Positions 27,404-58,522 of a stretch of 64,000 bases of DNA are shown here, in pieces. The stretch lies in assembly GCA_000827205.1 (NCBI GenBank), contig KN832558.1, forward strand, positions 1,104,239 through 1,168,238, written 5' to 3'. This DNA is from Plicaturopsis crispa FD-325 SS-3. Its lineage: Eukaryota > Basidiomycota > Agaricomycetes > Amylocorticiales > Amylocorticiaceae. Within the stretch, counting starts at the first letter, position 1, and every line of letters starts with the position of its first letter. Below the pieces are notes generated by a model. That model ran no database searches. It was not told the origin of the DNA and saw only the letters and a program-made list of their open reading frames with translations. A program made the position numbers and the translations under genes.

Positions 27404-27891
27404 TTGGGGCGCGAGGGAATGAATAAATGTTAATGTCGGGCGATTGCAACCCGCACTCAACCGTGTAGAGATAAGGTTATACAAAGCAACGTTTGCATAG
27501 TTTACGCTAGGAAACGCTATCTCATGGCAAATTAAAGTTGTTGGCGTTGAAGAGAGAAGATATGAGGGCTGCCAGGAACCAGGGGAGTATAATCTGGAGT
27601 AGCGCACGGCGCACATGGCACACGAGAGACCGCCGGCAAAGCGCGATCAATGCACATATAGCAACTTTATGTAAGGTTCAAGTGGTCCCCTCAAAACTGG
27701 ATACCAACTTTCAATTGGCCGGTTGCTATCGCCTTTCTGTTCCTCTTTCCTTATTTTCCCAAGAACAGTCTAGAGGACCGGAAAACTTGTCCAAAATAGC
27801 ACCCTCGAACTTCGACTTTTCCACATTCATACACTGTTTTACCCAGACCCATATTCGTTCCAGGATCGGCCGAATCAAGGGCGAAGTCGAC
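27404..27891. other. Intergenic stretch, no gene seen
   Basis: 5' flank of the large RA-PH gene. An open frame runs through part of it but has no recognisable content; the ATG at 27892 is the better start. Confidence 0.45.
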
Positions 27892-39663: not shown

Positions 39664-39690
39664 CCCAGGACCTCCGGGAATTATATTCGA
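39644..39690 (-). repeat. tRNA 3'-half-like fragment
   Basis: On the minus strand this reads as a tRNA T-arm with a B-box (GGTTCAATTCC), followed by an acceptor-like end (CGCTGGTGG). There is no A-box or anticodon arm upstream, so it is not an intact tRNA gene. It may be a SINE head or a tRNA-derived insertion. Confidence 0.5.
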
Positions 39691-39692
39691 TT

Positions 39693-39710
39693 ATAATCGA
39701 ATATAAGCGA
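39693..39710. repeat. 18-bp perfect palindrome
   Basis: ATTCGATTATAATCGAAT is its own reverse complement and is followed by further TATAAGCGAATATAAGG repeats. It adjoins the tRNA-like fragment. Confidence 0.7.
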
Positions 39711-39833
39711 ATATAAGGTCTTATAATGAGGTTATGAATTTCGACACAAGTCAACGCGTCAAAATTCATGACGTCATAGTCTTTGTCAGCATTCATGGAC
39801 TCTTGCAAACTTTTCTCTTCATCTCTTTTCCTC

Positions 39834-40014
39834 AGTCGCTTCGCTATTATTGCAGCACGGCTGAGGTATGTTGTTCATAGTATTCTCTTCACTACATTAC
39901 ATTACTTACCACTGTACTAGACGCATTTGCTGCGCACTTCATAGGTACAGTTTAATCAAGTCGCTTCGCTATTATTGCAGCACGGCTGAGACGCATTTGC
40001 TGCGCACTTCATAG
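39834..40014 (+). repeat. Tandem repeat whose second copy lacks a GT-AG intron
   Basis: Copy 1 is 39834-39865, then a 55-bp segment (39866-39920) starting GTATGT and ending ACTAG, then 39921-39944. Copy 2, 39959-40014, is the same two blocks joined exactly, without the 55 bp. The blocks begin AGTCGCTTCGCTATTATTGC and ACGCATTTGCTGCGCACTTC. A 14-bp spacer separates the copies. The missing piece has all marks of a spliceosomal intron. Confidence 0.85.
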
Positions 40015-40173
40015 ATTCTGTCAGAAAATTGTGCCGCAGATGAGTACAACTTTAGCTACACACAGTGGGGTGTGTATCTGGAGACGGAGCCTCGGGACGT
40101 ATGGTTCATGGTCGCGACATTTGTGCTTTTTTGTGAGCTAATATCACATTGAAGGTGGTTCAAGGGGGAGCAT

Positions 40174-40371
40174 ATGCATGGAACAATAATGCCTCGCCGC
40201 GAAACTGTGCTCCGCCTGCGTGGGGGTGCACCTGCCTTGGTCAGTGGGCTCCATCCCAATGCAAAGGAAAGGGAGGCCCGGAAGGCAGCAGCTATGAAGG
40301 CAGCAAACGATCACCGCGCCAAGAGAGCAGAGTTTTGGAGGGACGATGCAGAGGGTGAGGCACTAGTTTGA
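40174..40371 (+). CDS. Short frame with ubiquitin-like LRLRGG motif
   Basis: A 65-codon frame reads RRETVLRLRGGAPALVSG and then an Ala/Lys/Arg-rich helical stretch (KEREARKAAAMKAANDHRAK) to a stop. VLRLRGG is the exact C-terminal tail of ubiquitin, including the diglycine cleaved by deubiquitinases. The upstream sequence does not show the rest of a ubiquitin fold in any frame I tried. It may be the last exon of a ubiquitin-like fusion gene, a gene fragment, or coincidence. Confidence 0.35.
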   Translation: MHGTIMPRRETVLRLRGGAPALVSGLHPNAKEREARKAAAMKAANDHRAKRAEFWRDDAEGEALV

Positions 40372-41834
40372 ATAGAATCTCATGTATATGTGGTATCTTG
40401 GAAGTTACAAGCTTATGTGACCCGTGCAAGCACAGGTTCCGGAGTACTTACATGTAGCGAGACGTTCTTCTTTGTTCGCAGAGATCTGAATAGTTTTCGC
40501 TACATATCATGATGTTTCATTCGATTGACCCGGTACATGGTACATGGGAGGTAAGTAGTACTGTAAGATTAGACCCGCACGGCGCACTCTCCCAACCCGG
40601 TATGACCTCATCAAAGACCCCTCACGCTCAACTCAGTGCACACACTGACCTTTAATTGTCGTGTTCAGATGCCTTCCGCGGAGCGTCAAGGCTGAGCAGA
40701 CCTCTTTCAACAATTTGTTCTGCCTCATCCAGGCTGCAGATCTCCAATATAAGAGAAACTATTACCCAAGTATAGGCATCTGAAATTATGAAGGAGGAAG
40801 GCAAAAAAAACCGTTCTTGCGCTCATGACCTCGAAATTGATCATGAGAATATTTTACTCAGCATCGAGCAACGTACAAACGATTGGCGAGCTCAAGGAGG
40901 AGTGACCGGTGAGCGCTTGAGCCTCGTCAACGGTCGGACGTTGGTCGGACGCGCGCGCCACAATTCTCGTCAACGCGTTTGTTCGGCGATGTTTCCGGGT
41001 TCCGCAATTTGTCAGCATTTCCTGTCCCGATTGGGTCAATGTTTGGTCCGACCAAATACCGTCCTGTTTTCATGTATAGGATGCTAGATGGTACATCAGG
41101 AAAACCTCAGATCGTGAATTTACTTACATGAATTTCATGTAAATCACGGTGAACACGAAAAATCACATAAATTTTCACTAAACATTGTACAAACACTGTA
41201 AATACTATTGCCCACGTTAGCGGGAACATGCCAGCAACAAACGGAACATACGTGGTAATGAGACGCGTCTCTACTCGTTGGGTTGTCCTCAGGCTGTTGT
41301 CCGTGTCTGGCCGATACGGTCGCTGGAACGTGTATGCGTAAGCTGCTAAAAGAGGCGCCCGACCAGCAATCTCTTTATTGGGGCGACTCTACACCGTGTG
41401 CGTGGCTGCGTGCCGCTGAGTCTGGCATGCGCCATGCGCGCGTAGATATAGCTTGTGCAAAAGATTGACATGCTCGCCGACGCTGTCCTGTCGTCCGCGT
41501 ACGACTGACGCGGCAATCGTGGCGAGCGAAATGTCGATCCTGGTGTACGGCGGGCACGGCGGATGGACGAAAACGAGATATTGCAAGCGGCATCTCGTCT
41601 TCTCGCTGCTGTATGCGGGCCGGGTGCGTGTGGAGCGTGTAAGTAAGTAGAGGATATGGGGCATCGGGCGTACGTACCGTCCTTTGTGCTTCATCCGAGT
41701 GTAATTCCCGCTCAGCACCTCGTTCTTCCCGCTCAGCACATCCTAACGCTGATCCACCTCATGGCGCTGCTCCTACGCCACCTCGCGCTCCTCGTCGAGC
41801 CGGCTTGAGGGCAGCCAGCTTCCTCGGCCACCAG
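40372..41834. other. Stretch without a supported gene, left flank of the KDZ element
   Basis: No coding exon is convincing. A perfect inverted repeat with arms TTACATGAA/TTCATGTAA lies at 41124-41142. The sequence from about 41250 to 41800 is GC-rich with several short frames. Confidence 0.4.
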
Positions 41835-41926
41835 TCCTTGTACTTACATTGTAATGTCATAACATTGTAGAGGCAAGTCGCATTACAATGTCCTCCTCTG
41901 TAATGGTACCCCTAGACATTACAATG
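41835..41926. repeat. Left terminal inverted repeat of the KDZ element
   Basis: CATTGTAATG at 41847-41856, CATTACAATG at 41881-41890 and 41917-41926. It mirrors the right end at 56719-56814. Confidence 0.7.
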
Positions 41927-42397
41927 CCTCCTCTCTGCCAAATACTTCGCTGCCTCAGCCACTTTTGCAACCTGGCGGAATCCTTCGTCCGCATACCCTT
42001 GCTTGCTTACCAATCCCTCGTCTAGAGCAAAAAGCTTTGGCTGCGTCGAATAATACTCATCGAGAACTAGCAATCCTATTTCGGACTCAGAATTTATGGT
42101 TGTTTGATTCTCAAGCCGACTCGATTCATCTCTCAATCCCACCGGCTGATACCGATCCACTTTGAATTCAACATGGCTTACTTCCAAATTGACTTTCCCC
42201 CAATTCTATATAATTAGAACCATGTAATCTATGCTCAACGCTCAAGTTCAAATGAAATTGTCGTGTATTAAGATGTAACTCGGAGCAAACACATGTGGTA
42301 GACTATGTAATCAGAAAGACCGTGTCCCAAAACCTTACTTGCGCCTGATGATCGATGAAATCAGCCATGCACTGATCAGATGGATGATACTCAAAAC
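41927..42397. other. Non-coding left part of the KDZ element
   Basis: Between the terminal repeat array and the 3' end of the first cargo gene. No exon is supported. Confidence 0.4.
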
Positions 42398-44858
42398 TCA
42401 CCTTTTAGAAGCTCTCGTGGACGGTCCCACACCCTCAGCCCCACGCTTTCTTGACGCCCATGGCTTTCGAGTTGGGGAATGCGGTTTTTCCTTTGGCGCT
42501 GCAGGAACTACCTCGGGGGACCCACCACCTGCCGACATCTGTCCCAACACCCACGAGACATCGCGCACGGTCTTGATCCACCGCTCTCCCTCCTGAGGAT
42601 TCTTGACGAAGTTGAACTTGAGGTATTCCGGCTCCGTTCTCATCGTTGCGGCGACGCGCCACCATGCAAGGCCCCATACGACCTGTAGAATCCCACAGCT
42701 CCCGGCGGTGTTGAGTTTTCCCCAGTCATTCGGCCAGCTCTCCTGTGAGTACTCCTTGAAGCCCTCATCCTCGCTCACGATAATGCGAGACGGTGGTTGA
42801 AGCTCAGCCCACCATGCGGGCATGATGGAGCAGAAGCTCGGGGCGACAGGCGTGTCTTCAGCGGGACGCCCGCACTTCATCCATTTGTGTATCTCCTTTG
42901 GACGATGGGTCACCGGTAGGAGACCCCCTTTCTTCTGCATACGGGTGTCAGTCTACTAACATAGATATCGAACATGGAAGACGCACCCGATGGCCAGATT
43001 TAGCCTCGTACTCCATGAGCCTCCAAAGGCATTGGACCCACTCGTCCCCCCAATCCTTTTCCACCAGATACTCAAAAATCTCCACAGGCATCGTCCACTC
43101 GTCAGTGGGGAATGCACTCGTCACACTTTCGGCAGTTGTTCCCGGCTCGGTCATGGGCAATACGCCGGGTGGTGGCGGCGACAGTGTGCGGGGACGCGAC
43201 GGTGGGCGCGACGATGTGTGGGGACGAGACGGCGAGCGGCCACGAGAAGGCGAGCGGGGGCGAGAAGGAGACGGCGAGCGGGGACGAGACGGCGAGCGGG
43301 GACGAGACGGCGAGCGGGGACGAGACGGCCAGCGGGGACAAGATGGCGAACGGGCCCAAGATGGCGAGCGGCCGTGAGACGGCGAGCGGGGGCGAGAAGG
43401 AGACGGCGAGCGGGGACGAGACGGCGAGCGGGGACGAGAAGGAGACGGCGAGCGGGGACGAGACGGCGAGCGGGGACGAGACGGCGAGCGGGGGTGAGAA
43501 GGAGAAGGCGAGCGGGCACGAGAAGGCGAGCGGGGACGAGAAGGAGACGGCGAGCGGGCACGAGACGGAGACGGCGAGCGGGCGCGCGAGGTATGGCGGC
43601 CAGGCGACAGCGGGCGGCCGCCGGTGCCATGGGACGGTGTTGCCCGTGGAGGCCCCGCACTTGCAGCGCGCGAGGGGCTGGTCGACGTGGAGGGAAGGGT
43701 GCCGGGCAATGCGCGCGCGCGCTGATCACGCTCACCTGGATGTAGACGTCAGAGAAGTGCACACTTGAATAACATGATCAACTTACTGAATATCTCCCTC
43801 GAGAACCTACATAGAGACGCTGCAGCGTCCGCAAACCCCTTGTGATCAAAAAGGGGCCAGGTCTTTCCAACAGGGCTATCGGTTTCGCCAGCATGAACAC
43901 TAAAATCACGGTCAGCGCCGCCTGTTGCATTCAATCAACAAGCCGCGGCTTACCTTCTAACATCCAGCTTCCCTCCGAGCGCAGGGATCGGGCTGCAGAT
44001 CATGATGGCCACTACAGCCTTGCACTCCACGCTCAAGACGTTCGCTGTTGCCTGCAAGCGTCCCGGTAGGAGCTCAAGCAGCCTACGTACCCAAGGTCAG
44101 CCATCAAGATAAACGTGAAACAGACTGACACATACCTGTGGTAGTCCTCCGGCGTCATCTCTGTACTCGCAATCAATCTGGCAGCCTCCTCTGCCTCTGC
44201 CTTGTCCTTCGCGTACTCGGCCTCAATCCCAGCCCTCAACTCCTCCATGAATGCTGCGGACTCCAGCTTCAACTGCTCGACTGCGACCCGCGTTTGTATC
44301 TTGATAGCTATCGGTGCTCGCGTGCTGGGGTCCATCTTGTGCGCGGCGACTGCTGCGTCCCATGCAGCCTTGTAGGCAGGCTGGATGCGATCCTTGTGCT
44401 GCTTGATGTAGTAATTCACCGCCGAAAGGCGGCGGACGTTACTGCTGGCCCCCTCGACTTCCGGCACAAAGGGGGCGGGATTGGACGGCATGGCCAGGTT
44501 GTAGTTGCGGTACCAGTTGCTCAATTTCTGTGTATTCGTCAGACGCGATCTCCGCCGCTAACAAAACAAAACTTACAGTGCGGACTTCTTTATAGGTCTC
44601 CGATCGCGCTGCCCTTTCAGCGTCGTCGATGTCCTCGTCATTGGCAGCGTCCTGCTCCTCTTGCGACCGCGGTGGTACGTCCGTCTCGTACGCGAGATCG
44701 TAGCCCCAATTCCTCAGGAAACGCGTTGTGACCCTGTCGTAGAAAAGGCTCATGGGCCGTCCGCCAGCGCCGGAGAGCTCCCGCCACTCGGGGCAGTAGG
44801 ACTTCACAAATTCCAGCTTGTGGCCGCCCAGTTTCGATTTTGCGCCGCGTTTTGTCAT
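42398..44858 (-). CDS. KDZ-cargo protein with SPSRPR repeat tract
   Basis: Minus-strand multi-exon gene starting MTKRGAKSKLGGHKLEF. The first part (SLFYDRVTTRFLRNWGYDLA, then KLSNWYRNYNLAMPSNPAPF and SAVNYYIKQHKDRI) resembles a protein family often found beside KDZ transposases in Agaricomycetes. A middle block has VVAIMICSPIPALGGKLDVR and VHAGETDSPVGKTWPLFDHK, also typical. Then come about 170 residues of SPSRPR-type repeats (43190-43600), an SR-like tract coded by a 12-15-bp minisatellite. The C-terminal block includes WTMPVEIFEYLVEKDWGDEW, KEIHKWMKCGRPAEDTPVAP and WWAELQPPSR. Function is unknown; the SR-like tract suggests RNA or nuclear partners. It diverges from the next gene across about 190 bp, suggesting a shared promoter. 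The usual family lacks such a long repeat tract as far as I recall. Confidence 0.65.
43190..43600. repeat. Coding minisatellite (GC-rich, about 12-15 bp units)
   Basis: Repeats of GACGGCGAGCGGGGACGA-like units run through the region. On the minus strand they encode SPSRPR repeats; the other frames are open too because the unit lacks stops. Confidence 0.85.
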
Positions 44859-45049
44859 TGGGACGAGCAAGGTACGAGTGTATAAACTTCAGCATAAAAT
44901 GTTGAAAGCGCAGACCGTTGCGACGGGGCATTCGGCGTCTCCATTAGCCCCCGGACATATCATCTGACTCACGGCGCTATTAAATTTACCTAATGGTCCT
45001 GAAGTTCAACCGTCTACGAGGCATCTCCCACTTTCTCTTCCCCATCTCA

Positions 45050-46272
45050 ATGTCTACCGCCGCCAGCAAAGACGAATCCGACGACGAGCAGCTCGACCGT
45101 CTCTTCAGAGACTTGTCTGTATCTGGGGAAGACCGTCGCAGGCCCACAACGTCCAGTGAGTTTTCCGTTGGCATAATTCTTTGTTCGGTCGCACCACTTA
45201 ACCCTCACCAGGCATCAGCCATGTAACAACCCCGGCCACTCGTACTCAGCCCTCGCCGCTGCTATCAAATACTGCGGCCTCTCGGCCTTTCTACCTAGTC
45301 TCAGCCGGTAAGGAGGTCGGTGCTATGAAACACTGGTAAGTCCATGTACGCAGGTGTTATCTTGGCTCACGCCGGTTCAGGTATGAGGCGGGCGACGCGA
45401 CACAAGGCGTTCCCGGCTCCCAAGTCAATAAGGTTGATACCGCTAGGCGTCAGGGCTCGCGCTACCGGCCTTTGCCCCCTTCGCCGTCGCCCGTCCCATC
45501 TCCTGCCGCTCCCCCTCGCGTCGCTCTCACCCAGTCCCCCTCCCCAGCTTCACCCGCCTCAAGCGCCGGCCCGCTTCCTCTCCCGTACTACCCATACACC
45601 GTCCACGGCTTGCCCATGGATGGTGCGGCTATCGAGCGCGCATTGGCAAACCCACATATCTCCCCCCAGGCTCCGCCTCGCCCTCTCCCCGCCCCACATC
45701 GCGGCGCGGTCTACGTTGTAGCACGGGGCAAGGTACCTGGCGTATATCTCAACTAGTACGTAACCCCATCTCGCCTTAACAACTACTCGCACGCTAACCC
45801 ACCATTGCAGCCCCGATTGCCTCCTCTCCATCAAAGGTGTCTCGGGAGCCGTCTATCAGAAGTACGCCACGCTTCATCATGGGCTGGGTGCGTGGTCCAT
45901 CGCCTGGGGAGCAGGCAAAGTTGGCTTGCCTCTTCCCCGTTCCACTGGAGGCCCTTCGCGCAGCGAGCAGCGCCCAGCCCCGCTATCTCCCCGCCCATGG
46001 TACCTTGTGCCTGTCAGCGCCCCATCGTCCCGCCAGCAGGAACCCCGCCCCATCGTCGTATTTAAAGGCACAACCACCGGCGTGTTCAATGACTGGTGGG
46101 TAGCTATTACATTCCTGAAGAAGTGTGCTGACAACCGTCTAGGCTTGAATGTGCTGACTACGTGGTAGGAATTTCGTGCGCTATATACAACAGCTTCAAT
46201 ACCCAGAGAGAGGCTCGCCAGGCGTATACAGCGGCGCTCCGCGACGGATATGTTGTCCTCCTTACACGATAG
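45050..46272 (+). CDS. Protein with RNase H1 N-terminal-like (viroplasmin) modules
   Basis: Starts MSTAASKDESDDEQLDRLFR. After an intron a first module reads RPFYLVSAGKEVGAMKHWYE and GVPGSQVNKV. A Pro/Ser-rich linker follows. A second module reads GAVYVVARGKVPGVYLNPDC, LLSIKGVSGAVYQKYATLHH and GLGAWSIAWG. A third, weaker one reads IVVFKGTTTGVFNDWNFVRY, with GVYSGALRDGYVVLLTR at the end. The pattern YxVxxGxxPGVY...W/C...V.G..GA.Y..F is that of the RNase H1 N-terminal (hybrid-binding, Cauli_VI) domain, which binds RNA-DNA hybrids. No RNase H catalytic domain is present. Binding of hybrids or dsRNA is therefore inferred. It lies in the KDZ element next to the SR-repeat gene. Confidence 0.6.
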
Positions 46273-47442
46273 TTTTTACTTTGTCCTTTAAAATAGTGCT
46301 GTTGAATGTGAACAAGTCTCGCTTTCTGAAAATGTGATTTAAAGGCTCGACGTGTGCATTGACGGAAAGTGAGCCAACTGCGGAGTTGCCCCAGTCTTAT
46401 TAAGTATAGATAAGATACCTCAGACCTACGGTGCATATTTGCAGCAGCGAGACTGAACCATCCAACAACTTGAACAACATTTCAGGTGCGGATTCTGCCA
46501 TATGAACGCAGTACAATCATACGGGATACACTGGACCATACTTTGACATGAAAATGTGATGGCTAAACTATGAAATGAAGGTGTTTGAGTAGGGTACCAA
46601 AAGTCGCAAACTGTCGCAAACTTTTGCCCAAGTCGCGAGGGTTTACATGCGCGCGTTCAGTTGTGTGCACGGACCACACAAGTGCAGCCAAACATGGCAC
46701 GCGCGCACGGACCCCGCTCAACACATATATAATCTGTCCACTTTTCATTCCGTCCACCTGTAATCCCCACTATTTTGCCCTCGTACGCTAGCGTCCGCTG
46801 TGGTTCCTCAAGTCCTCAGTCTGCCGTTGGTAAGCTTTGCGTCGTCTTAGCTCTGTATTCTTTAACTCAGAGTTGCGTTGTGGCATTTTATTTAGGTGGT
46901 CGGTTCACCTGGTGGGCGGCGTGTTGATTCATAGGTATGTACATTATGCGGTCGACGCTAATGATATTCACTGACATGTTCGGGTACACAGTTGCGCGGT
47001 CAGGACATTCCGCTCGACGTCTTGTCGCAGGCCGCCTGTTGACATTGGTCATGGGCGCGTAGTGTGGGTGGGCTTTGAGGGCGTGGGCGGTTGAGGTGGG
47101 GTGCGTCGAAGGTGACCACGCGCGGCTGCAAGGCGGGGTTTGCGTTTCTGTTGGTGTGGGGAGGGTATCGTCAAAATTTTTGTATGGGGCGGGTATCGTC
47201 AAATTTGTAGCTAGGCAATATAAAGATTTTTTCAAATAATATGCATGCTCCTGGGCGCTCAGAAAAGGGGGATGAAGTCAGTGTTGAAGTTTTTCCTGCA
47301 GACCGGCGCAGTGTGCGACAAGTTCGCCGTCGATGCAAAGCCGCGTTTGGCAGCCCTGACTGGCGCGAGTTCAGTAGCGATACCGCCGTCCCATTTGTTG
47401 ACTTCTGTTTTTGTACCAGGATTCCCTCTTGCATCGTTGCTC
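46273..47442. other. Non-coding spacer in the KDZ element
   Basis: Between two cargo genes. A direct repeat of GGTATCGTCAAA occurs near 47165 and 47191. No exon supported. Confidence 0.4.
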
Positions 47443-48283
47443 TCATGCCTCGACCACGGATGTCTGCAGAGGCCAAAGCCGCTGCACGTAGACGCACCAA
47501 CTCAGACCATTATTGGAAGTACGTTGGCGTCGCTTTCTCCAAACGCCGTGCTAAAGGATTCGTCTCAGATACCGCGCGGAAAAACTAGTGAAGCAACGCC
47601 TGCGTAGTCGGAGGAACCGAGAGGACAAGTGAGTGTGCACTGCTTTGCGTATCTGCGTCCCGTCACCTTTTTTCTCCAGGAAGAACGACCGCGCGATGAT
47701 GAGCGTCAAGCCCGAAGACCTGCCAGGCCCTGAGGAGCCGTACGTTTTCCTTTGCGTTTGCCATACTGCCCCGCTCACGACTTGCATTAGCGTATATCTT
47801 GGTGATTTCGCGCATGCATGTGCAGAGGAAGCTCGAGCGCTGTGCACCTTGTGCAGCCCGGACGACAGCGGCGGCGTCGTCGGTGATGACGACCGCGCCG
47901 GCAGGGATGGCTCCGACAGCGGCGACGTCGTCGGCGATGACGATGACGGGGATGGCTCCGACGACCCATACAGAGACACGCGCGAGGGGGGGCTGGTTTA
48001 TTTTATGCAGGAGCTCAATCTATGGGCCGATCTTCGTGGCCCCATCGATTCCCTTCCTGCCTCGCTGCTGGACGAACGTACCGATGCTTTGGCTAGTGGT
48101 ATGTTGAAGGAGTGGTGCGCGCGGTGTCAGGGCGAGGCGTTCAAGGGTAGACGCATGGTAGGGGAGGTGCTTGGGGCATGCGCAAAATCGGGGCCGGTGG
48201 GCGGCGAGGTCTTGGAGTTTTTGTCGAACCTTTTCTCCCGTGCACACGCAGCGGTGGCGGCGTTGGAGCTATATTCGTTGTAG
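47443..48283 (+). CDS. KDZ-cargo protein, basic N-terminus and acidic repeat
   Basis: Exons join in frame from MPRPRMSAEAKAAARRRTNS (47443) through YWKVKQRLRSRRNREDK and DRAMMSVKPEDLPGPEEP to a long last exon. That exon has two imperfect copies of GVVGDDDRAGRDGSDS / DVVGDDDDGDGSDDP, then FMQELNLWADLRGPIDSL, ASGMLKEWCARCQGEAFKGR and FLSNLFSRAHAAVAALELYS. The basic N-terminus resembles the short basic segments of transposon-linked fungal proteins that may bind DNA. Several Cys residues (CTLC, CARC) could bind metal. Function is unknown. Confidence 0.55.
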
Positions 48284-48938
48284 TCGGGCAATATATTCTT
48301 TGACCTATGGACAAAAAGCGGCGTCGCCGCGTATCCTATAGGTTGCACGTGTGCTTCGCGCGCCGCGCTTGGCCGCTCTTTGTTGAAATTGCGGCGTTTT
48401 TATGACCGCCGTTCATATTTATTTAAACCCCAACCTCTGCCAGCCTTTCTCCCCTCCCTATTCCTCCGCCTCTCCAACGTTTGACTCCCTCCTTGCGGTC
48501 GGTTGACCTGTTCAGACCCAAGTAAGTCTAATTTGCTTTTGTTTTATCCCCCATTCCCGCCTTGCCCGCCATACTCCCCTGCAAGCTAAGGCTGTGTCAG
48601 ACCCAGGCACTACCGCGGTGCGCAGGGGTCCAAGGGTCTCTTTCTGTGTGGAGGGTATCTGCTTGCCAGAACTCCCGAGCAAGCCAAAGCTGTGTCAGAC
48701 CCAGGCACTACGGCGGCGCGCTCGGGTTAGGCAACGCGTACCCTCACGCGTCGCGTCCGCATCCATTTGTTTCTCTTTCTTTCTTAACCTTGCTGACTCA
48801 GGTTCTCTATCAGGTTTCGATATGGTGGGGGCCCGCTCGGTGAGTAGGCGCGGTTTTTGTCGGTTTACGAGGTTTGTACTGACCCAGCCACAGACGCGTT
48901 CTGGGCGCGAGTTTACGCCCTATCAAGGCACCGTCACC
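48284..48938. other. 5' region of the dioxygenase gene with a direct repeat
   Basis: Two imperfect copies of a 43-bp unit lie at 48581-48623 and 48679-48721 (both contain GCTGTGTCAGACCCAGGCAC). They sit upstream of the dioxygenase start and could be regulatory. Confidence 0.5.
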
Positions 48939-50577
48939 ATGGTCAAGACAACGTTCTCCATTGACGATGCAGTCTTTGACGCAATGGCCCTGGCGGACGA
49001 GCGCGGCGTGAATGGCGAGGGCGATAGTGAGGGCGCAGAGGTCGACTCCGCCTCCCAGCCGTCAACACCCTGGCAACGCCCACAGTCGCCCCTGCCTCTG
49101 CTCCCCGCAACCCCGGCAGCCTCACCCGCTTGCAAACCTCTCGATGAACCCCCCTCCCCCCTCACCCCCCTGCCATGCGACTTGGATGAGCCGCCGGCAG
49201 CGCTCTTTTCAGTTCTCGAACCGGACTCCTCCATCCCCAATCTTCAGCTGCCGCCCCCAAATTTCCCGCTTGGGAGATCTCCACCGGGCTCCCCCGTCGA
49301 ATCCACCGTCGCCGCGCACAAGCGCGACGGTGCTCGCAAGCGCCGCCAGAAGCGCCGCGCCGCTGCTAAGGCCAACGGTCCGCACGGGTACAAGGTTCGC
49401 TCCTCGCTGTCGAAGAAACACCGCCATATTCCCGCCATGAAGGTGCAGTTCTCCGCGTCGAAACTGCACGTCGCTAAGGGCGCGTTTATTGGGCGCCGCA
49501 TCACGGGTGGGCGGAAGATGGCGTACACATTGGCGGAGCTTCTGGGGCAGGGGTTTTCGGTGCACTCTTGGAATGGATGGTGAGTGCAATAGCTTCTGTG
49601 CTGCTGACTCTCCGCTGATCCTGCGCCTAGGGACGCGGAGACCTTCCTGGACAGCCACGGTCGCGTCATCTTGGCGCTGGCGGCGATGCCCAAGCAGCCC
49701 GGATGGGACGGTGTTATCGCGCAAGCCACCGCAAAGGTTCTGGGGTCAGGCGACCGCGTGAATGCCGACGGTCTTCACCGCCGCGGGCAGTATAAATCTC
49801 TACCGGTGGGCGTGTCCTATGGTGGGGGGCAGAAGGTAATTGTGCATTCTCGATGCCCTTTCGCTGGCTTATGAGGGGTTCCCACAGGCGCCCGGCAACC
49901 TTCGACAAACCAAGGGAAATCAGCGCGTCCTCCGGGAGCTCCTCGATGACGGCGCGATTAAGCGAATCGCCGGGTTTCAAAGCAGTGAGTCTGGCCGCGC
50001 CTACCGCCGTCTCATTTAACATAGGTTATGCACAGGCGCCCTCGCCTTCTATGGCCCCAAAATCTTCCAAGACATCTCCAAGACTACCGAGAAACTTCAC
50101 CGCCGACACTCACATCTCCGCCGCAATTTTAGTAACAGCATCTATCCCACCATGACTTTCAACTTCGGGCCTGCAACCGTCTGCTTCGAGCATACCGACT
50201 CCGGCAACGGGCCCGTTTACTGGTGCGCCGTCACTCCCGGCGGCAGCTACAACCCCAAGCTCGGAGGCCACCTCATCCTCTTTGATCTCAAGTTGATCAT
50301 CGAGTTTCCGCCCGGATCGACTATTCTCCTCCCATCCGGGAGCATGCGCCATGGAAATGTTCCCATCCAGGAGGGCGAAACTCGGATGTCGATCACGCAG
50401 TACTGCCCGGGGGGCCTCACCCGCTGGGTTCGGTATGGGTTCAAGACTGCGGATGCGCTTGGGAAGGACAGGGTTGACAAGATTATCGGTGACGGTCACA
50501 AACGATGGCGCAGGGCTCTGCGAAAGTTCTCGAGGGTGGATGACCTGTGCCAGGACCGCATGAATGTCTTTGCTTAG
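48939..50577 (+). CDS. TET/JBP-type 2-oxoglutarate Fe(II) dioxygenase
   Basis: Four exons: 48939-49579, 49631-49835, 49888-49984 and 50036-50577. The N-terminal part is Pro-rich, then very basic (HKRDGARKRRQKRRAAAKAN), which may bind DNA. The catalytic half is the double-stranded beta-helix of the TET/JBP family: TFNFGPATVCFEHTD (the H-x-D iron site is HTD), VYWCAVTPGGSYNPKLGGHL, ILFDLKLIIEFPPGSTILLP, then SMRHGNVPIQEGETRMSITQ. The latter supplies the distal His and the 2-oxoglutarate-binding Arg. FCPGG-like QYCPGGLTRWV follows. The family oxidises 5-methylcytosine (or thymine in JBP). KDZ elements of basidiomycetes are known to carry such genes. All key residues look present, so activity is plausible but not shown. 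Confidence 0.85.
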
Positions 50578-50781
50578 ATTACATTGTATCCCCGGCGTCC
50601 TTTCTAATTGAATGCTTTCTTGTGGCTCACAAAGATGCGCGAAGTACGCCGCAAAATGCAAACTACGGAGGCCTCAGCCCGGGATAAGCAAGCTGGAACG
50701 GTCACGTGTAATCGTACGCGTCGGTTAGCTTTTGTTGATTGTGCCCAAGTTCCCACCGCCCCTTTCAGCCATCCACAGTCC

Positions 50782-53094
50782 ATGGCAAAAAAAAAGAAAC
50801 CCCCTGCTACCTTCCATATCCATGGCGAGCCCCCTGCCTCCTCTAGCGTGTTGTCTGTCTTGTCGAGGCCAGGAAGAATGCGAATGCAGGTCTTTACCTC
50901 CCGCATTGACCTCCCTCCGCCAGCGCCTGTCCCCCCCGTGGTGACCGCCCCTTCAACGCCTTGGTTCGACTTCTCCCAGGACAATTTCGAGGACCCGCGG
51001 ATGGAGGGCTTAGGCACGGAGGACATTGCAGGCCTGGAGGTCTGTACAAAAATACCTGCTAAGCGGTATCAAAACTCGGTATGTCTTCAACGTCCTCCAG
51101 TGGGTGAGTGCACTCAACGAAAATCACTTCCCCACACAGGATGAGCCCCTGCTGACCTTCATGCCATTCCGCGATGAATACGGGCTGGAGCTTCTCCGGC
51201 TGGAAGGAAGAGGCGGGTATTCCGCCAGCACCGGGTGCCAGGACTGCCGCGCGTTGTCGCCGAGTTTCCGCTGTGAAGAGTGCGGCAAAGGGTCCCTTTT
51301 ATGCAAGGATTGCATCGTCGAGAGGCACCGGCACCTTCCCCTACATTTCATTCAAGTGCGTTCACACCCCTGCCCCGCTGCATACGTGCTAACCCTGCAA
51401 TAGGCCTGGAGGGATGGTTTTTTTCGCCGCGTCCGGTTACGTGAACTGGGGCTCAGAGTGCAGCTCGGGCACAGCGACGGCAGGATTTGTCCACACCGCC
51501 AATCCGGACACCAAAATTTCATTGTCATTCACACCAACGGCATCCACCGCGTCGCCGTAGACTTCTGCGGCTGCGAACCTGGCTTCGACCGATTCCGACA
51601 AGTGCTTCGCAGAGCTTGGTGGCCCGCCACCCCCCTGGAGCCACAAAGCTGCGCCACCATGGAGGTGCTCCGCCTTTTCCACACCGTCAACCTTCAGGGC
51701 CGAATCAGCGCCTTCGACTTCTACAAGTCGCTCGAGCTGATGACAAACCCGAACAGGCTTAACCCCCTGCCTGTGAGTTTGCACCGCCTGCAACTTATTG
51801 CTTTGCTGACTTTTGGCCAAGGATCGCCTGGCCGTCTTCATGATCATCATACGCGAATGGCGCAACATGATAATGCTGAAGCGTGCTGGGCGATTTCACC
51901 TGGGTGGGGTGGAGGGGACGGGGCTGGGGGAGCTCGCGTTGAAGTGCCGCGCCTGCCCGCATCCAGGAATCAACCTGCCGCCCGATTGGAGGATGATGGC
52001 GTCGTGAGTCGCAAACGTCGCGCGGGTCTCCGGTAGTGCTAATCCTGGGTCACTGCAGATATCTCGTCCGGACAACGCTGCACGAGGACGCCAACTTCCG
52101 ACTGTCCAACAAAGCTCGCGCCAACGGACACCGCGACCCCGTTCTTGGCCCTGGGTGGGCGTACCTCGTAGACAAGCGATTGTACGCCGAGCACCTCAAG
52201 AATTACATTCACCAAGACGAGGTGGGGTTTCGATGATGATCTCCCTCGACCAGCGCGCTAACTCCCGAGGTTCCGTAGATTGCAACTTGCTCGGGCTTCG
52301 CCGCGTTGATCCTCGCCAACTTAAAGCGTCTCAAGGGTATAACTTCAACGGGCGTTGGGGGGGTGATGTGCGATGACGAGATGTGGAGAGCACAGGGTGT
52401 TGGTGATCTCCAGAAAGGGGAGCGGTGGGTGGCGCTTATGCCCTTTTCGTTCTACGCTAACTATTGGACGTTTACGGGGACAGGTTCTCCAACATGGATT
52501 ATCTTTTTTTCTCTGCGGCAAAAGGCGTCGAGACCCCCGTCCTACTTACCTACGACATTGCCTGCCAGTGGAGCCGAAACCTCTGGAAGCGCGCACCGAG
52601 CATGCCCGCCCACCTCGGCCCCTTTGTTCCTGCAAGTGCAGTCACATTCAAGGTCCCCAAACTGCACCTTCATGGCCACGAAGAGAAGTGCCAAGCTCCC
52701 TTTTCTTTGAACTACACGCCGGGCGCTGGGCAGAAGGACGGTGAAGGGATTGAGCGGGGCTGGTCATCCATCAACGGCGCTTCGAAGAGTACCAAGGAGA
52801 TGGGCCCCGGTGCACGCAGCGATACGCTGGACGACTTTTTTCAGTTTGACAACTACAAAAAGATGACCGGCCTAGGTAAGCAGGCTTCATCGTCGCCTCT
52901 GCATTGCTTTGGTTAATGTCTTCCAGGGGATCGGCTTCTTCGCCGCCTGCTTGAGGCAATTCCGGAGGCCATGGAGCGTCGGTCGGAATATGACGCATTC
53001 GACCGCATGCTCCGAGAGCATCGTCAGGAGGAGGTGGAGGAGTGGGAGGGGATGCTGCGCGACTGGGAGGCTGACCATGATCAGCCCTGCCCGT
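50782..53094 (+). CDS. KDZ transposase, CxC2 domain and catalytic part
   Basis: Starts MAKKKKPPATFHIHGEPPAS. After the first intron DEPLLTFMPFRDEYGLELLR precedes the CxC2 zinc module: CQDCRALSPSFRCEECGKGS, CKDCIVERHRHLPLHFIQ and later CGCEPGFDRFRQVLRRAWWP. The KDZ catalytic domain follows: LHEDANFRLSNKARANGHRD, TSTGVGGVMCDDEMWRAQGV, GDLQKGERFSNMDYLFFSAA, VLLTYDIACQWSRNLWKR, FKVPKLHLHGHEEKCQAPFS and DGEGIERGWSSINGASKSTK. The acidic residues in HEDANF, YDIACQW and GEGIER fit the catalytic triad of the family. The exon after the intron at 52871-52926 leads into DHDQPCP and then meets an LTR-type insertion. The C-terminal part of the gene lies further right. Confidence 0.88.
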
Positions 53095-53368
53095 TGTCAG
53101 AATGCAAAGAGCACCCTAGTCCCCATGCAGCAGGCTGGTTAAGGCCTAGTGTGAACTAACAGAGAAGTCACCGGTCAAAGAGAACAAACACTGCGAGGTT
53201 CGCGGGTGAGGTACGATACACAAGAACGAGCTGTATATATATGATCCAACAACCCTCTGCCCTAGTCATGTGACCAATGACTCGGTCTGACTCACTCTGA
53301 CTCACTCTACCCCTGAGCTGCAAACGCGCACACACAAACCCAAATCCCAACACCCGTATCGTCTAACA
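53095..53368. mobile_element. LTR-like sequence, copy 1, inside the KDZ transposase
   Basis: 274 bp beginning TGTCAGA and ending TCTAACA, so the ends are inverted copies of TGTYAGA, as in LTRs. It contains a TATATATA motif. A second, identical copy lies at 54748-55021. It interrupts the transposase gene. Family is not identified; no internal retroelement genes are visible in this window. Confidence 0.55.
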
Positions 53369-54080
53369 ATGCCCAGTGAGCTGCACCCCGACCCTATCTT
53401 GCCATGATAATGACACAACTTACAGCCCTCACCATTGCCGATGTTCGGCTCGAACTTGCGAAGGAGGAGCAGAAGCGGGCGGAGAAAGGGGAGGTTGGGC
53501 TGCACGAAACGACGCCGAGCGCCTTCCTGCTGCTGGGCATGGAGATCGAGGGTGCACAGTACGTCGCAACATTTTTCTTTCCACTGCACCATCGCTTAAA
53601 AACGTCGGGCAGGCGCGTTCTAGCAAGGGACGTTAAATCCAGGACCCGGCTTACATCCCTTCAAGATACGTCCCTTCAGGAGCGCCGAACAGCCATCTAT
53701 AGGAAAATCCGCCGCTTTGAAACCCTCCAACACATCTATATGCCTCGACTACACGCCGCTCCTCCCCGTACTGTAGGTGTTGCCACGATCAGCAATGCTA
53801 GGCCGGGAGACAAAGTCGCCAATGCCGAGGATGTTCCGATTTACTTGCCGTCGTCGCTGGATAGCGAGGCGCGACGCTTTTCGTGTACTGCGGGGCTGGC
53901 CGACATCGAGGCGCGTCTGCGATACGCGGAGAGCGTCGAGACGTTGGAGACGCTTCGCCGACACCTGCGCACACGGACGTGCATGAATCGATTCAAGATC
54001 AAGAACTACACTGGTCAGAAGGCAAATACGCGTGCTCGTATGTCGCAGGCGACGGTGGACGAGCAGGTTTTCCTGGCAAA
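53095..54080. repeat. 986-bp segment identical to 54748-55733
   Basis: LTR plus part of the transposase C-terminal exons, ending at the run of Ns. It is an exact copy, offset by 1,653 bp, of the segment on the far side of the gap. An assembly duplicate is the simplest explanation. Confidence 0.85.
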
Positions 54081-54591
54081 NNNNNNNNNNNNNNNNNNNN
54101 NNNNNNNNNNNNNNNNNNNNNNNNNNNNNNNNNNNNNNNNNNNNNNNNNNNNNNNNNNNNNNNNNNNNNNNNNNNNNNNNNNNNNNNNNNNNNNNNNNNN
54201 NNNNNNNNNNNNNNNNNNNNNNNNNNNNNNNNNNNNNNNNNNNNNNNNNNNNNNNNNNNNNNNNNNNNNNNNNNNNNNNNNNNNNNNNNNNNNNNNNNNN
54301 NNNNNNNNNNNNNNNNNNNNNNNNNNNNNNNNNNNNNNNNNNNNNNNNNNNNNNNNNNNNNNNNNNNNNNNNNNNNNNNNNNNNNNNNNNNNNNNNNNNN
54401 NNNNNNNNNNNNNNNNNNNNNNNNNNNNNNNNNNNNNNNNNNNNNNNNNNNNNNNNNNNNNNNNNNNNNNNNNNNNNNNNNNNNNNNNNNNNNNNNNNNN
54501 NNNNNNNNNNNNNNNNNNNNNNNNNNNNNNNNNNNNNNNNNNNNNNNNNNNNNNNNNNNNNNNNNNNNNNNNNNNNNNNNNTAGGCCGAAA
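54081..54591. other. Assembly gap (run of N)
   Basis: 511 unresolved bases. Read frames through it are meaningless. Confidence 0.99.
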
Positions 54592-54747
54592 AGGCGACGG
54601 GCGAAAAACGCTTGCATTGTTTTACATCCTGAAGGGGAAGGATGGTGCTGCGACCCACCGGCAGACACAGAAAACATTGATTATTTTACATCCCCAAGTG
54701 ACAAGAAAAGGATGGCTGGGCACTCGCCAGACAGAGGAACCCGCGAA
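54592..54747. mobile_element. Possible edge of the internal region of an LTR element
   Basis: 156 bp of unique sequence between the gap and LTR copy 2. It matches neither flank of LTR copy 1. It could be the first or last internal stretch of an inserted LTR element. A TTTTACATCCTGAAGGGG and TTTTACATCCCCAAG pair recurs within it. Too short to assign. Confidence 0.35.
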
Positions 54748-55021
54748 TGTCAGAATGCAAAGAGCACCCTAGTCCCCATGCAGCAGGCTGGTTAAGGCCT
54801 AGTGTGAACTAACAGAGAAGTCACCGGTCAAAGAGAACAAACACTGCGAGGTTCGCGGGTGAGGTACGATACACAAGAACGAGCTGTATATATATGATCC
54901 AACAACCCTCTGCCCTAGTCATGTGACCAATGACTCGGTCTGACTCACTCTGACTCACTCTACCCCTGAGCTGCAAACGCGCACACACAAACCCAAATCC
55001 CAACACCCGTATCGTCTAACA
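54748..55021. mobile_element. LTR-like sequence, copy 2
   Basis: Identical to copy 1 at 53095-53368 as read by eye. If both are real LTRs of one element, the identity means a very young insertion; if the duplication is an assembly artefact the two are the same LTR. Confidence 0.55.
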
Positions 55022-55078
55022 ATGCCCAGTGAGCTGCACCCCGACCCTATCTTGCCATGATAATGACACAACTTACAG

Positions 55079-56525
55079 CCCTCACCATTGCCGATGTTCG
55101 GCTCGAACTTGCGAAGGAGGAGCAGAAGCGGGCGGAGAAAGGGGAGGTTGGGCTGCACGAAACGACGCCGAGCGCCTTCCTGCTGCTGGGCATGGAGATC
55201 GAGGGTGCACAGTACGTCGCAACATTTTTCTTTCCACTGCACCATCGCTTAAAAACGTCGGGCAGGCGCGTTCTAGCAAGGGACGTTAAATCCAGGACCC
55301 GGCTTACATCCCTTCAAGATACGTCCCTTCAGGAGCGCCGAACAGCCATCTATAGGAAAATCCGCCGCTTTGAAACCCTCCAACACATCTATATGCCTCG
55401 ACTACACGCCGCTCCTCCCCGTACTGTAGGTGTTGCCACGATCAGCAATGCTAGGCCGGGAGACAAAGTCGCCAATGCCGAGGATGTTCCGATTTACTTG
55501 CCGTCGTCGCTGGATAGCGAGGCGCGACGCTTTTCGTGTACTGCGGGGCTGGCCGACATCGAGGCGCGTCTGCGATACGCGGAGAGCGTCGAGACGTTGG
55601 AGACGCTTCGCCGACACCTGCGCACACGGACGTGCATGAATCGATTCAAGATCAAGAACTACACTGGTCAGAAGGCAAATACGCGTGCTCGTATGTCGCA
55701 GGCGACGGTGGACGAGCAGGTTTTCCTGGCAAAGGCTCGCTACCAACGATCGCGGGAGGCATACTTTCGGCTGTCCGGCCCAGGCCCGTGGGAGGCGGAC
55801 CTTCAGGTCCTCAAGGACGAGGATGTACGTGGTCTTAACGAGCGCGGGCTCACGCAGAGGGAGAAGGACGAGCGCGATCTCGTTCGGAGAATGGGGGGTA
55901 TGAATGAGGAGGACGAGGCTGACCTCGCAGCCGAGGATCTGAGGGGTGTAGTAATGGATCGGCCGGCTCAGGGGGGAGAGTCAAGGCAGACCATCTCTTG
56001 GCTGTGGATTTCGGGGGTGTCTTGCGAGGATGAGTCGGATCCCCGTATGCACGAAGGTAAGAGGCGTGTTTGATTGGAGTGCAGCCCTGAACTAATTCAC
56101 TTGTACCAGCACTGCGGGTTGAGTGGGCCAAGTCGAAAGCACGGGCTGATCGCTGGGAGGAGGAGGTGCACCTCCTGCTAGAGAAGATGCGCAGGGTGCT
56201 CGCATTCGGATCATGGCAGGGCGAGTGGTGGCGATCGCTAGCCCGCGACATCGACAACCAGGACAAGCCCCTCCGCATTCTCGACAACGCCCGCTTCAAG
56301 CCAAAATACACGGCTCTCGGAGACAGCGCCTTACGAGAGGGGTTTGCTGCCTACGCGCGTGAGCATGCGGCAGTTGAGGACGCGCGCGTTCGCAATTTTG
56401 ACGCAAAATGGAGTGGGGCAATTCGACGCGCTCGCAGCTTGGTTTTGGGCGAGCCGCAAACTGGGCTCGAGGAGGCGGCCAGTCGCCCGATTGTGCTCGA
56501 ACTTGAGGGGGGCGAGCTTGGCTGA
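55079..56525 (+). CDS. KDZ transposase, C-terminal part
   Basis: Continuation of the transposase to the right of the insertion. Exons encode LTIADVRLELAKEEQKRAEK, VGLHETTPSAFLLLGMEIEG, then after an intron RVLARDVKSRTRLTSLQDTS and ERRTAIYRKIRRFETLQHIY. Later blocks are PIYLPSSLDSEARRFSCTAG, ADIEARLRYAESVETLETLR and MNRFKIKNYTGQKANTRARM. After a second intron near 56058-56108 comes VEWAKSKARADRWEEEVHLL, ending in LELEGGELG. These helical, charged segments are the usual C-terminal part of KDZ transposases. The first 655 bp of this part is also present at 53426-54080, just before the gap. I do not join it to the N-terminal part here. Confidence 0.8.
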
Positions 56526-56718
56526 GTCGAGTGGGCACGCGGTTTGCACCGGTCCTAGCCCAGCTGTTTTTGTGTATCCCGAATATATCTATTTGTCGCT
56601 CTCTTTATATTCACTTCAAATGGCTTTATTCATTCAAAATTAAGATTTATTACCCTGTCTCAGGGGCCTTAGGGCTGGATTGTATGGGATTGAAAGGTCA
56701 CATGATCCTCGCGCTAGA

Positions 56719-56814
56719 CATTACAATGTCAAATTGGCTGGCAGGTCTATAGAGCATGCCATTGTAATGCGACCTAGCTCTACAGAGGGCCGCATTACAA
56801 TGCCTCTACAAGGA
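56719..56814. repeat. Right terminal inverted repeat of the KDZ element
   Basis: CATTACAATG at 56719-56728, CATTGTAATG at 56760-56769, CATTACAATG at 56793-56802, then a short spacer and TACAAGGA at the end. It is the mirror of the left end. Confidence 0.7.
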
Positions 56815-56903
56815 CGCCTGCCTCGGCACGTACATGGGGTGGGGCGCAACGATGCTGAAGGCACGCGGCAGGCGCGGCACGACGCGCAGATTGCGTCGGC
56901 GCC

Positions 56904-57881
56904 TGTGAGGATCAGACCCGAAGGTTCACCAAACAGTCGCGTTTCGGCGGAGCGGGTTCTGCGGACTCGCTGAGACGATCGCGGACGAGAGATAAGATGG
57001 CGATAAGTCGCGGGAGAAGTCGCGACGTGCGAGGAAGTAGTCGAGCCGGCGGAAGCGGCGAAGGCGAGAGTCACGACAGAGGAAGTCGCGGGAGAAGCGG
57101 CGAAGAGGCGCCGAAGATTCGGAAATCTAGATAAAGGCAAGATCAGTAGTTACGCAGTTAGAGATTAGAGCCCAGCGACGGGAGAGAGGCGGAAGAAGCT
57201 AGAGGATAGGTCTAAGAGAGCCGAGCGACGGGAGGGGTTAGAACGAAGCAGAGTCAGAGATAGAGGCGAGGGAGAAGTGTCGGGACAAGTGTCGACCGAG
57301 GAAAGACGCGTAGGAGCGACGAGGAGAGTGGCGATGAGACGAGGTCGCGGAAACGCTTGTTGGGTGAGTTAAACGCAATTTTAAGTCTAGCGAGTATGTA
57401 CAGGATCGAGCAGTATTTATACTTTGAAAGGAAGAAAGGGGTAATATGTCTAAAAGGGTACGCCGACGGCGTGTAAGTCGTGCGGCGTACAACGTGTTCG
57501 ATAAAATCAGAATGATACTAGAATAAAACAGGGAAAGCGTCTTTGTCGAGATCTCGTGTCGTGCGCTGGATGCAGCGAGCGTAGGGACAACGCGTGAACC
57601 TGTTGATGCGAGTGATGCACGTGGCGTACCTACGCGAGGGCTGTGGTCGGGGTCGCGTGGGTCACGGGAGCGCGTGTTGATGGCTTGGCGATTGTTCGGC
57701 AGGCAATCCCGTCGGGTTCGGGCCGTATCGAGCGGAGTATGCGGTCCGAGCTCGCGTATTTGGTGTCGTGTCGATGTCGCGAGGTTCGGAGTGGCGGACT
57801 TCGCGTATTGTGGCTGTTCGAAGTCGCGGAGGCGTGCCGGCGTAGCGTAACTCAGTGAGCTCGTTGGTACGGGTCGTGACA
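56904..57881 (-). mobile_element. Solo LTR (Ty3/Gypsy-like)
   Basis: 978 bp with TG...CA ends, read on the minus strand as TGTCACGACCCGTACC to CTCACA. It is bounded by a perfect 5-bp target duplication GCGCC at 56899-56903 and 57882-57886. A TATAAATACT promoter-like motif lies near 57413-57423. The TGTCACGACC start is common in fungal Ty3/Gypsy LTRs. No internal region is present, so it is a solo LTR left by LTR-LTR recombination. Clean ends and target duplication suggest modest age. Confidence 0.8.
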
Positions 57882-57886
57882 GCGCC

Positions 57887-58522
57887 CTAGCGGATGTACT
57901 GAGCGAGGCATGCGGCAGTGGACGTGCCCGCAGAAGACGGACACGGGCGATTTTAAAGGCTCGAGGAAGATGGGAGGAGAGGAGGTGCAATGGAAAGGAA
58001 AGAGGGACAGCGCCGTCACGCGTGAGGCCTTAAGTGATTGAGGAGCTCCTACATAGTTTACGAGAACGAGATGTTGACAGTGAGACTTCATGCATCATGA
58101 ATTCGTCAACGCGCGGTATATAATGTGCAACAGTACATGTCGCGGTTAGATTTACTAGGCGGCCACGGAGTGCCCAGGGTCCCTCTGATGAACAACGTGG
58201 AATTGCCGCAATGCCGAACGGATCACCGAGCGTGATACTCCGGCTTTCCATAAGCTATCGGCTGTGGGTCGGAATTCGGAACACGCGTCGGCGCGTTCAA
58301 TCCGTTCTGAGCGCTCGCAGCTTCACCGCCATCTCGCCTCTGCCCTTGAACAAGTACTTTGTCCATCGTCCATTTCCTTTTCTACGGGGCCGCCTGTTGC
58401 TCTGTCCTCAAGCACGGTAGCTCTGTATCAGCGGCGGAGATTGCAGCTTTTCCCGATTCTCAATCCGCCATTGGCGAAACGCATTATCGGTCCCGGTGCT
58501 TCACTGGATAAAGTCGCCAATT
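57887..58522. other. 5' flank of alpha-actinin; holds shared 28-bp motif
   Basis: Positions 58225-58252 carry, in reverse, the motif also found at 34823-34850. Read on the minus strand, it continues into a small ATCAC/GTGAT hairpin. No coding exon is convincing. Confidence 0.45.

What the first reader, a model, noticed from the sequence alone, without database searches (positions are those of the whole stretch)
41835..56814. 15-kb KDZ element bounded by matching arrays of a 10-bp motif
Both ends show TCCTTGTA, four free bases, then CATTGTAATG, and two further CATTRYAATG motifs inward, spaced 33-41 bp, in mirror order. All five cargo genes lie between. Arrays of three subterminal motifs look like transposase-binding sites, and they define a large multi-gene unit. 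KDZ elements are known; this exact set of cargo and end structure I have not seen described.
Basis: partly seen in the sequence, partly recalled or inferred. Interest (0 to 1): 0.8.

Follow-up and report, generated by a model that had tools for sequence, protein, structure and literature searches.

The report
Fungal jumping-gene element, ends now pinned
This is a large fungal cut-and-paste transposon carrying several extra genes, among them a possible DNA-demethylase-like enzyme, that has jumped into another transposon; its ends can be placed to the base, and it belongs to a kind already described.

Summary
Six CATTRYAATG motifs occur in the window (0.16 expected), all in the two arrays. The element is 41829-56820, 5'-CA..TG-3', flanked by an exact 7-bp duplication, CCTCGGC, the pattern reported for two Laccaria Kyakuja families (Kojima 2025). 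The transposase matches Pfam KDZ (6.4e-56) and CxC2 (8.9e-40). Cargo includes an RNase H1 N-terminal-domain protein and a putative TET/JBP-type dioxygenase, called on residue spacing alone: no significant Pfam or PDB match and a failed fold. The length is unreliable: a 501-N gap lies beside an exact 986-bp duplicate. Copy number and empty sites could not be tested. Ordinary in kind; moderately interesting in ends, cargo and nesting.

The parts
41829..56820 (.). Kyakuja-type (KDZ) element, 14,992 bp as assembled, including 501 N; 5'-CA..TG-3' termini
   Evidence: Exact 7-bp duplication plus CA/TG termini, the only exact 6-, 7-, 8- or 9-bp hit with CA..TG ends in the 696 x 696 bp scanned around the ends; with one mismatch allowed (7 and 8 bp scanned) there is one other 7-bp pair, 41829/56893. 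0 of 20,000 random position pairs give an exact hit within 10 bp outward. Length
41822..41828 (+). left copy of target duplication CCTCGGC
56821..56827 (+). right copy of target duplication CCTCGGC
41829..41929 (+). left imperfect inverted repeat with three CATTRYAATG motifs (41847, 41881, 41917)
   Evidence: 21 of 28 outermost bases match the other end without gaps
56716..56820 (-). right imperfect inverted repeat with three CATTRYAATG motifs (56719, 56760, 56793)
42398..44858 (-). cargo gene 1, unknown function; two 5' exons clear, repeat-rich middle uncertain. The script's model ran on to 41912; I set the end at the stop of the open frame 42398-42940 by judgement
   Evidence: no Pfam family at its cut-off for the first 295 residues or for four raw frames
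44993..46291 (+). cargo gene 2, protein with RNase H1 N-terminal (Cauli_VI) domain, two stretches
   Evidence: Pfam PF01693 3.1e-14; model open, its ends uncertain
47245..48484 (+). cargo gene 3, unknown function, acidic stretch; weak model
   Evidence: no Pfam match for 256 of 269 residues
48822..50577 (+). cargo gene 4, putative TET/JBP-type dioxygenase, 515 aa, five exons with GT-AG introns and no internal stop
   Evidence: H388-x-D390-x-x-N393, H441, R452, Y458; no significant Pfam or PDB match
50884..56525 (+). KDZ transposase gene, interrupted in the assembly by a gap and duplicate; KDZ and CxC2 domains left of the gap; start codon uncertain
   Evidence: Pfam KDZ 6.4e-56, CxC2 8.9e-40; 50884-53095 and 55057-56525 open
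53095..55733 (.). assembly problem: 53095-54080 equals 54748-55733 exactly (986 bp), with 501 N at 54081-54581 between
34823..58252 (.). enclosing IS3EU-like transposon: 28-bp exact inverted repeats TATGG..CCATA, flanked by AGCTAT; about 8.4 kb without the insert
34817..34822 (+). left copy of the outer 6-bp target duplication AGCTAT
58253..58258 (+). right copy of the outer 6-bp target duplication AGCTAT
35834..37366 (-). transposase of the enclosing element (integrase core); the two models differ in exon borders
   Evidence: Pfam PF24764 rva_4 3.1e-8, 34 bits against a cut-off of 26; first model open

Best explanation
The feature is a structurally complete Kyakuja-type KDZ DNA transposon of a fungus (probably an agaricomycete, inferred), inserted into an older IS3EU-like transposon. 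Its DDE transposase is inferred to recognise the ends through the triple 10-bp motif arrays in the imperfect ~100-bp inverted repeats, cut at the CA..TG boundary just outside them, and insert with a 7-bp staggered cut that left CCTCGGC duplicated. The passenger genes move with it. The dioxygenase candidate is inferred to oxidise methylated bases on the element and so counter methylation-based silencing. Shown: ends, duplication, transposase superfamily, nesting, open reading frames in my models. Inferred: transposase binding to the motifs, current activity, the dioxygenase and its chemistry. The confidence given is for element, ends and nesting.
For: Motif arrays far above chance; inverted repeats; exact 7-bp duplication with CA..TG ends at a symmetric 6-bp offset, 0 of 60,000 random pairs for a symmetric offset up to 20 bp; a 7-bp TSD and 5'-CA..TG-3' are reported for two Laccaria Kyakuja families; KDZ and CxC2 domains; open coding models; an outer element with its own inverted repeats and duplication encloses the insertion.
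Against: No second copy could be sought. The two Laccaria families have no inverted repeats; this element has imperfect ones. TSD length discriminates weakly: other KDZ elements make 4-8-bp duplications (KDZ2, KDZ3). CCTCGGC is not rare here, 3 times on the plus and 9 on the minus strand of the window, and a bare 7-mer match within 10 bp outward arises in 145 of 20,000 random pairs. The assembly is broken inside the transposase gene. No transposase tree was made; CxC1 also scored, below its cut-off. The dioxygenase has no significant Pfam or PDB match. Odds lowered from 0.88 to 0.82 on re-checking, because the Kyakuja pattern rests on two families.
Confidence: 0.82

Rival explanations
1. It is a Zisupton-type or other KDZ element that normally makes 8-bp duplications, and the 7-bp match is part of a decayed 8-bp one.
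For: Zisupton has inverted repeats and 8-bp TSDs, and this element has imperfect inverted repeats. Extending the match by one base either way gives 7 of 8. KDZ1 makes 8-bp TSDs.
Against: The CA..TG termini coincide exactly with a perfect 7-bp match. CA..TG with 7 bp is the pattern reported for two Kyakuja families.
Confidence: 0.13
2. The motif arrays are binding sites of a host or element-encoded regulator (transcription or silencing control) and not transposase sites. This rival concerns the arrays only, not what the element is.
For: The motif contains CATTGT/ACAATG, which I recall as an HMG-box core (from no call). The arrays could also act near promoters.
Against: The arrays lie at matching distances from both ends (18/52/88 and 18/51/92), as expected for end recognition. 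No HMG family was listed for the five models, some of them partial, that were scanned up to E = 1.
Confidence: 0.2
3. The two arrays belong to two separate elements or solo ends, and the 15-kb interval is a chance or mis-assembled pairing.
For: There is an N gap and an exact duplicate inside the interval.
Against: The two ends share one exact duplication at symmetric offsets, and the unit interrupts one enclosing transposon whose two ends also share a duplication.
Confidence: 0.04

Closest known systems
TET-carrying Kyakuja elements of Agaricomycetes (Kojima 2025, PMC12730594; outline and abstract, sections 3.2, 1, 3.4, part 1 of 2 of the Discussion, figure legends and search passages seen; figures and supplements not seen)
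   Same: KDZ transposase; in two Laccaria families also 7-bp TSD and 5'-CA..TG-3' termini; a dioxygenase-like gene inside the element.
   Different: Imperfect ~100-bp inverted repeats with triple motif arrays, where the two Laccaria families are said to have none. Three further cargo genes whose presence in the published families I could not check. By position counting the dioxygenase has Asn where Gly or Ser, and Cys where Asp, is reported; no TET chain among the PDB matches.
KDZ elements of Marasmius oreades (PMC8290104; search passages seen)
   Same: KDZ DNA elements of a mushroom whose inverted-repeat motif was characterised.
   Different: Cannot be compared: the motifs are in a supplementary figure not seen.
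KDZ1, KDZ2 and KDZ3 of Cryptococcus neoformans (PMC12810828; search passages seen)
   Same: Large KDZ elements of about 9-11 kb with inverted repeats; KDZ transposase with a cysteine cluster.
   Different: 139-241-bp TIRs, 8-bp (KDZ1) or 4-8-bp (KDZ2, KDZ3) TSDs and a CxC1 cluster; here CxC2 passes its cut-off and CxC1 does not.
KDZ transposons of Pleurotus ostreatus (PMC7641404; search passages seen)
   Same: Intact elements preceded by a CxC2 cluster, as here.
   Different: The terms inverted repeat, TSD and target site do not occur in the main text, so ends cannot be compared.
IS3EU DNA transposons (for the enclosing element; PMC12730594 and PMC10045372, passages seen)
   Same: 6-bp TSD, TA..TA termini of the form TAYGG..CCRTA, integrase-like DDE transposase.
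   Different: TIR of 28 bp here against 'longer than 30 bps' for the rust families. Whether it carries a TET gene of its own was not tested.

Membership tests
KDZ superfamily | KDZ transposase domain | tested here: met
   Pfam PF18758 6.4e-56, positions 4-217 of 217
KDZ superfamily | associated cysteine cluster | tested here: met
   CxC2 PF18803 8.9e-40
Kyakuja | 7-bp target duplication (reported for two Laccaria families) | tested here: met
   CCTCGGC, exact
Kyakuja | 5'-CA..TG-3' termini (same two families) | tested here: met
   41829 CA, 56820 TG
Kyakuja | no inverted repeats (same two families) | tested here: not met
   imperfect inverted repeat, score 68 against shuffle maximum 31; it is not clear that this feature defines the whole group
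Kyakuja | transposase groups with Kyakuja in a phylogeny | not tested
   no named KDZ reference sequences were obtained
TET/JBP dioxygenases | HxD...H iron triad and 2OG-binding Arg | tested here: inconclusive
   H388-x-D390, H441, R452 by spacing; no aligned reference, no usable fold
AG-type TET/JBP dioxygenase | Asp at the CcTET 337 position, Gly or Ser at 331 | tested here: inconclusive
   Cys and Asn by counting; no alignment, and the same two positions are 4 apart in NgTet1 (234, 238) but 6 apart in CcTet and hTet2, so counting can mislead
AG-type TET/JBP dioxygenase | close relative of CcTET | tested here: inconclusive
   no TET chain among 7 and 16 PDB sequences listed up to E = 10; that CcTET is in that copy was not verified
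IS3EU (enclosing element) | 6-bp TSD with TA..TA termini | tested here: met
   AGCTAT and TATGG..CCATA
IS3EU (enclosing element) | integrase-like DDE transposase | tested here: met
   PF24764 3.1e-8; subgroup not tested by phylogeny
any transposon family | several copies in the genome | not testable with these tools
   no genome held

The most novel reading that the evidence does not exclude
A Kyakuja lineage with an organised end structure of three 10-bp sites in ~100-bp inverted repeats, carrying a dioxygenase outside the described PU, AG and PE types: it has HxDxxN, with the Asn that human TET2 uses to hold 5-methylcytosine, rather than the Gly/Ser and Asp reported for Kyakuja-borne enzymes, together with an RNase H1 N-terminal-domain protein that I did not find reported with Kyakuja. 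Odds lowered from 0.25 to 0.2 on re-checking, since the residue argument is position counting.
Probability: 0.2. Interest if true: 0.6.

Novelty: new member of a known kind. Interest (0 to 1): 0.4.

Why it matters
This copy offers a defined set of parts (paired arrays, target duplication, transposase) for working out how KDZ transposases recognise their ends, in a group where two families were described as having no inverted repeats. Its dioxygenase candidate may test whether Kyakuja-borne enzymes all follow the CcTET mechanism. The nesting in an IS3EU-like element gives the relative order of two insertions.

Tried and rejected

Longer matches (8-11 bp) between the flanks: many are the motif itself, the others come without CA..TG ends and are mostly GC-rich; taken as chance, without a control of their own.

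A base-composition drop at 53-56 kb: an effect of the N gap, since GC of two stretches there without N is 0.55-0.56; rejected.

Host gene interrupted at the insertion: three frames of 60 or more codons cross the joined empty site (88, 73 and 125 codons). I judged none convincing and did not search them as joined; the flanks belong to the enclosing transposon.

Fold of the dioxygenase exon: mean pLDDT 34.7, useless, so no fold search was run.

Relatives in viral contigs: the dioxygenase exon (7 stretches matched a pattern, 0 confirmed), the KDZ exon (1 stretch, 0 confirmed) and the end pattern (0 matches).

NCBIfam gave nothing for two proteins; PHROGs gave one match at E 0.29. Papers: viroplasmin with KDZ, 0 papers. 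A wider search found 41 papers holding at least two of four terms; in the eight listed neither KDZ nor Kyakuja occurs, the other 33 were not seen. Iyer et al. 2014 was not held. So 'RNase H1 domain not found reported with Kyakuja' is weak. A search for Kyakuja with subterminal or transposase binding listed 6 of 19 papers, none of the six holding Kyakuja.
Full report
Observation. Both ends read TCCTTGTA, four bases, CATTGTAATG. CATTRYAATG occurs six times in 64 kb, all in the two arrays, against a mean of 0.16 by chance and 0 of 100 shuffles with six. Offsets from the true ends are 18/52/88 and 18/51/92 bp. Read inward, the third motif's centre differs between the ends, AC on the left and GT on the right. 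A gapped alignment of the first 130 bases with the reverse complement of the last 130 gives a ~100-bp imperfect inverted repeat, score 68 against a maximum of 31 in 500 single-base shuffles.

Ends. Random position pairs in this window, with no set distance or order, gave an exact hit within 10 bp outward in 0 of 20,000, within 20 bp in 3 of 20,000, within 50 bp in 2 of 4,000, and with a symmetric offset up to 20 bp in 0 of 60,000. A bare 7-mer within 10 bp outward arose in 145 of 20,000, and CCTCGGC itself occurs 12 times in the window on both strands. So the duplication alone is suggestive; with the termini and the symmetry it is strong. Seven-base duplications and 5'-CA..TG-3' are what Kojima reports for two Laccaria Kyakuja families; Zisupton and KDZ1 make 8-bp, KDZ2 and KDZ3 4-8-bp duplications.

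Genes. A small splice-aware script of mine, trained on ten open frames taken from this same element, gave the models; no transcript supports them. (1) Minus strand from 44858; the script's model ran to 41912, I end it at 42398; its centre is a repeat array whose frame is uncertain. (2) 44993-46291, RNase H1 N-terminal domain, 3.1e-14. (3) 47245-48484, unknown, weak model. (4) 48822-50577, the dioxygenase candidate, open with four GT-AG introns. (5) 50884-56525, the transposase: KDZ 6.4e-56, CxC2 8.9e-40, with EDANFRL, TYDIACQW and GEGIERGW stretches that I read as the acidic triad (positions; the reading is from memory).

The dioxygenase. Pfam lists no family up to E = 1 for the whole model, and up to E = 10 only a transposase family at 0.15-0.2 for its parts (the program drops most matches above 0.1). 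No TET chain is among the 7 and 16 PDB sequences listed up to E = 10; the second list does hold two chains named glyoxalase/bleomycin resistance protein/dioxygenase at E 0.28 and 0.36, which I take as chance. NCBIfam and PHROGs are uninformative. A single-sequence fold failed. What remains is spacing. H388-x-D390-x-x-N393 puts Asn where CcTet has Gly331 and human TET2 Asn1387 (PMC11040006, passages). H441 can be the second iron ligand. R452 followed six residues later by Y458 matches CcTet R385 and F391. The D-to-R distance is 62 here and 57 in CcTet. Against: the residue eight after that Arg is Pro, where CcTet has Arg393 and human TET2 a His; the second His to Arg distance is 11 here and 15 in human TET2 (the latter recalled); and the Gly331 and Asp337 equivalents are 4 apart in NgTet1, so counting can mislead. 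Against AG type: Kojima reports Asp conserved at 337 and Gly or Ser at 331 in Kyakuja-borne enzymes; by counting they are Cys and Asn here. Against PE type: HxD, not HxE. I hold TET/JBP-type at about 0.7 (0.75 before re-checking) and the subtype as open.

Enclosing element. A self-comparison showed an exact 29-bp inverted repeat at 34822-34850 and 58225-58253. In five simulated windows no exact inverted 20-mer arose; the real window has thirteen, ten of which a 29-bp pair accounts for. The repeat ends TATGG..CCATA and is flanked by AGCTAT on both sides; a 6-bp match arises in 50 of 200,000 random pairs. A spliced minus-strand protein inside matches an integrase core at 3.1e-8, above its cut-off; its single exons reached only 0.031 or nothing. 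IS3EU elements end TA..TA, usually with 6-bp duplications. So the Kyakuja-type element lies in an IS3EU-like one, about 8.4 kb without it.

Assembly. 53095-54080 equals 54748-55733 exactly (986 bp), and 501 N lie at 54081-54581. The likeliest cause is unmerged contig ends, though 166 bp of other sequence (54582-54747) precede the second copy, so a true tandem duplication is not excluded. If the unit 53095-54747 (1,653 bp) is an artefact, the element is about 13.3 kb.

Mechanism. Shown: two matched ends, a target duplication, a transposase with a full-length KDZ domain match, open frames in my models. Inferred: the arrays serve as transposase sites, the element can still move, and the dioxygenase counters methylation silencing, as Kojima proposes for such elements in general.

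Known or new. TET-carrying Kyakuja elements are described. The end structure and, by counting, the dioxygenase's residues differ from that text, but its figures and supplements, which show the termini of each family, were not seen, nor was the Marasmius figure of KDZ inverted repeats, nor Iyer et al. 2014. I therefore file it as a new member of a known kind.

Noticed in passing
34823-58252: IS3EU-like transposon with exact 28-bp inverted repeats and 6-bp duplication AGCTAT enclosing the Kyakuja-type element.
   Followed up: yes
53095-55733: Exact 986-bp duplicate beside a 501-N gap; 166 bp of other sequence (54582-54747) precede the second copy.
   Followed up: partly
43171-43582: GC-rich tandem repeat array inside cargo gene 1, periods 18 to 60 bp, open in several frames.
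   Followed up: no
39834-40021: Two pairs of short direct repeats (32 and 33 bp, 125 and 70 bp apart) inside the left part of the enclosing transposon.
   Followed up: no
25972-31438: Run of four long plus-strand open frames (up to 744 codons), none with a Pfam match at E 0.01, GC up to 0.59; not identified.
   Followed up: no
5579-6367: Minus-strand open frame matching a ZIP zinc transporter (Pfam 2.7e-18).
   Followed up: no
41847-41926 and 56719-56802: The motif contains CATTGT/ACAATG, which I recall as an HMG-box core site (from no call); no HMG family listed for the element's five models.
   Followed up: partly
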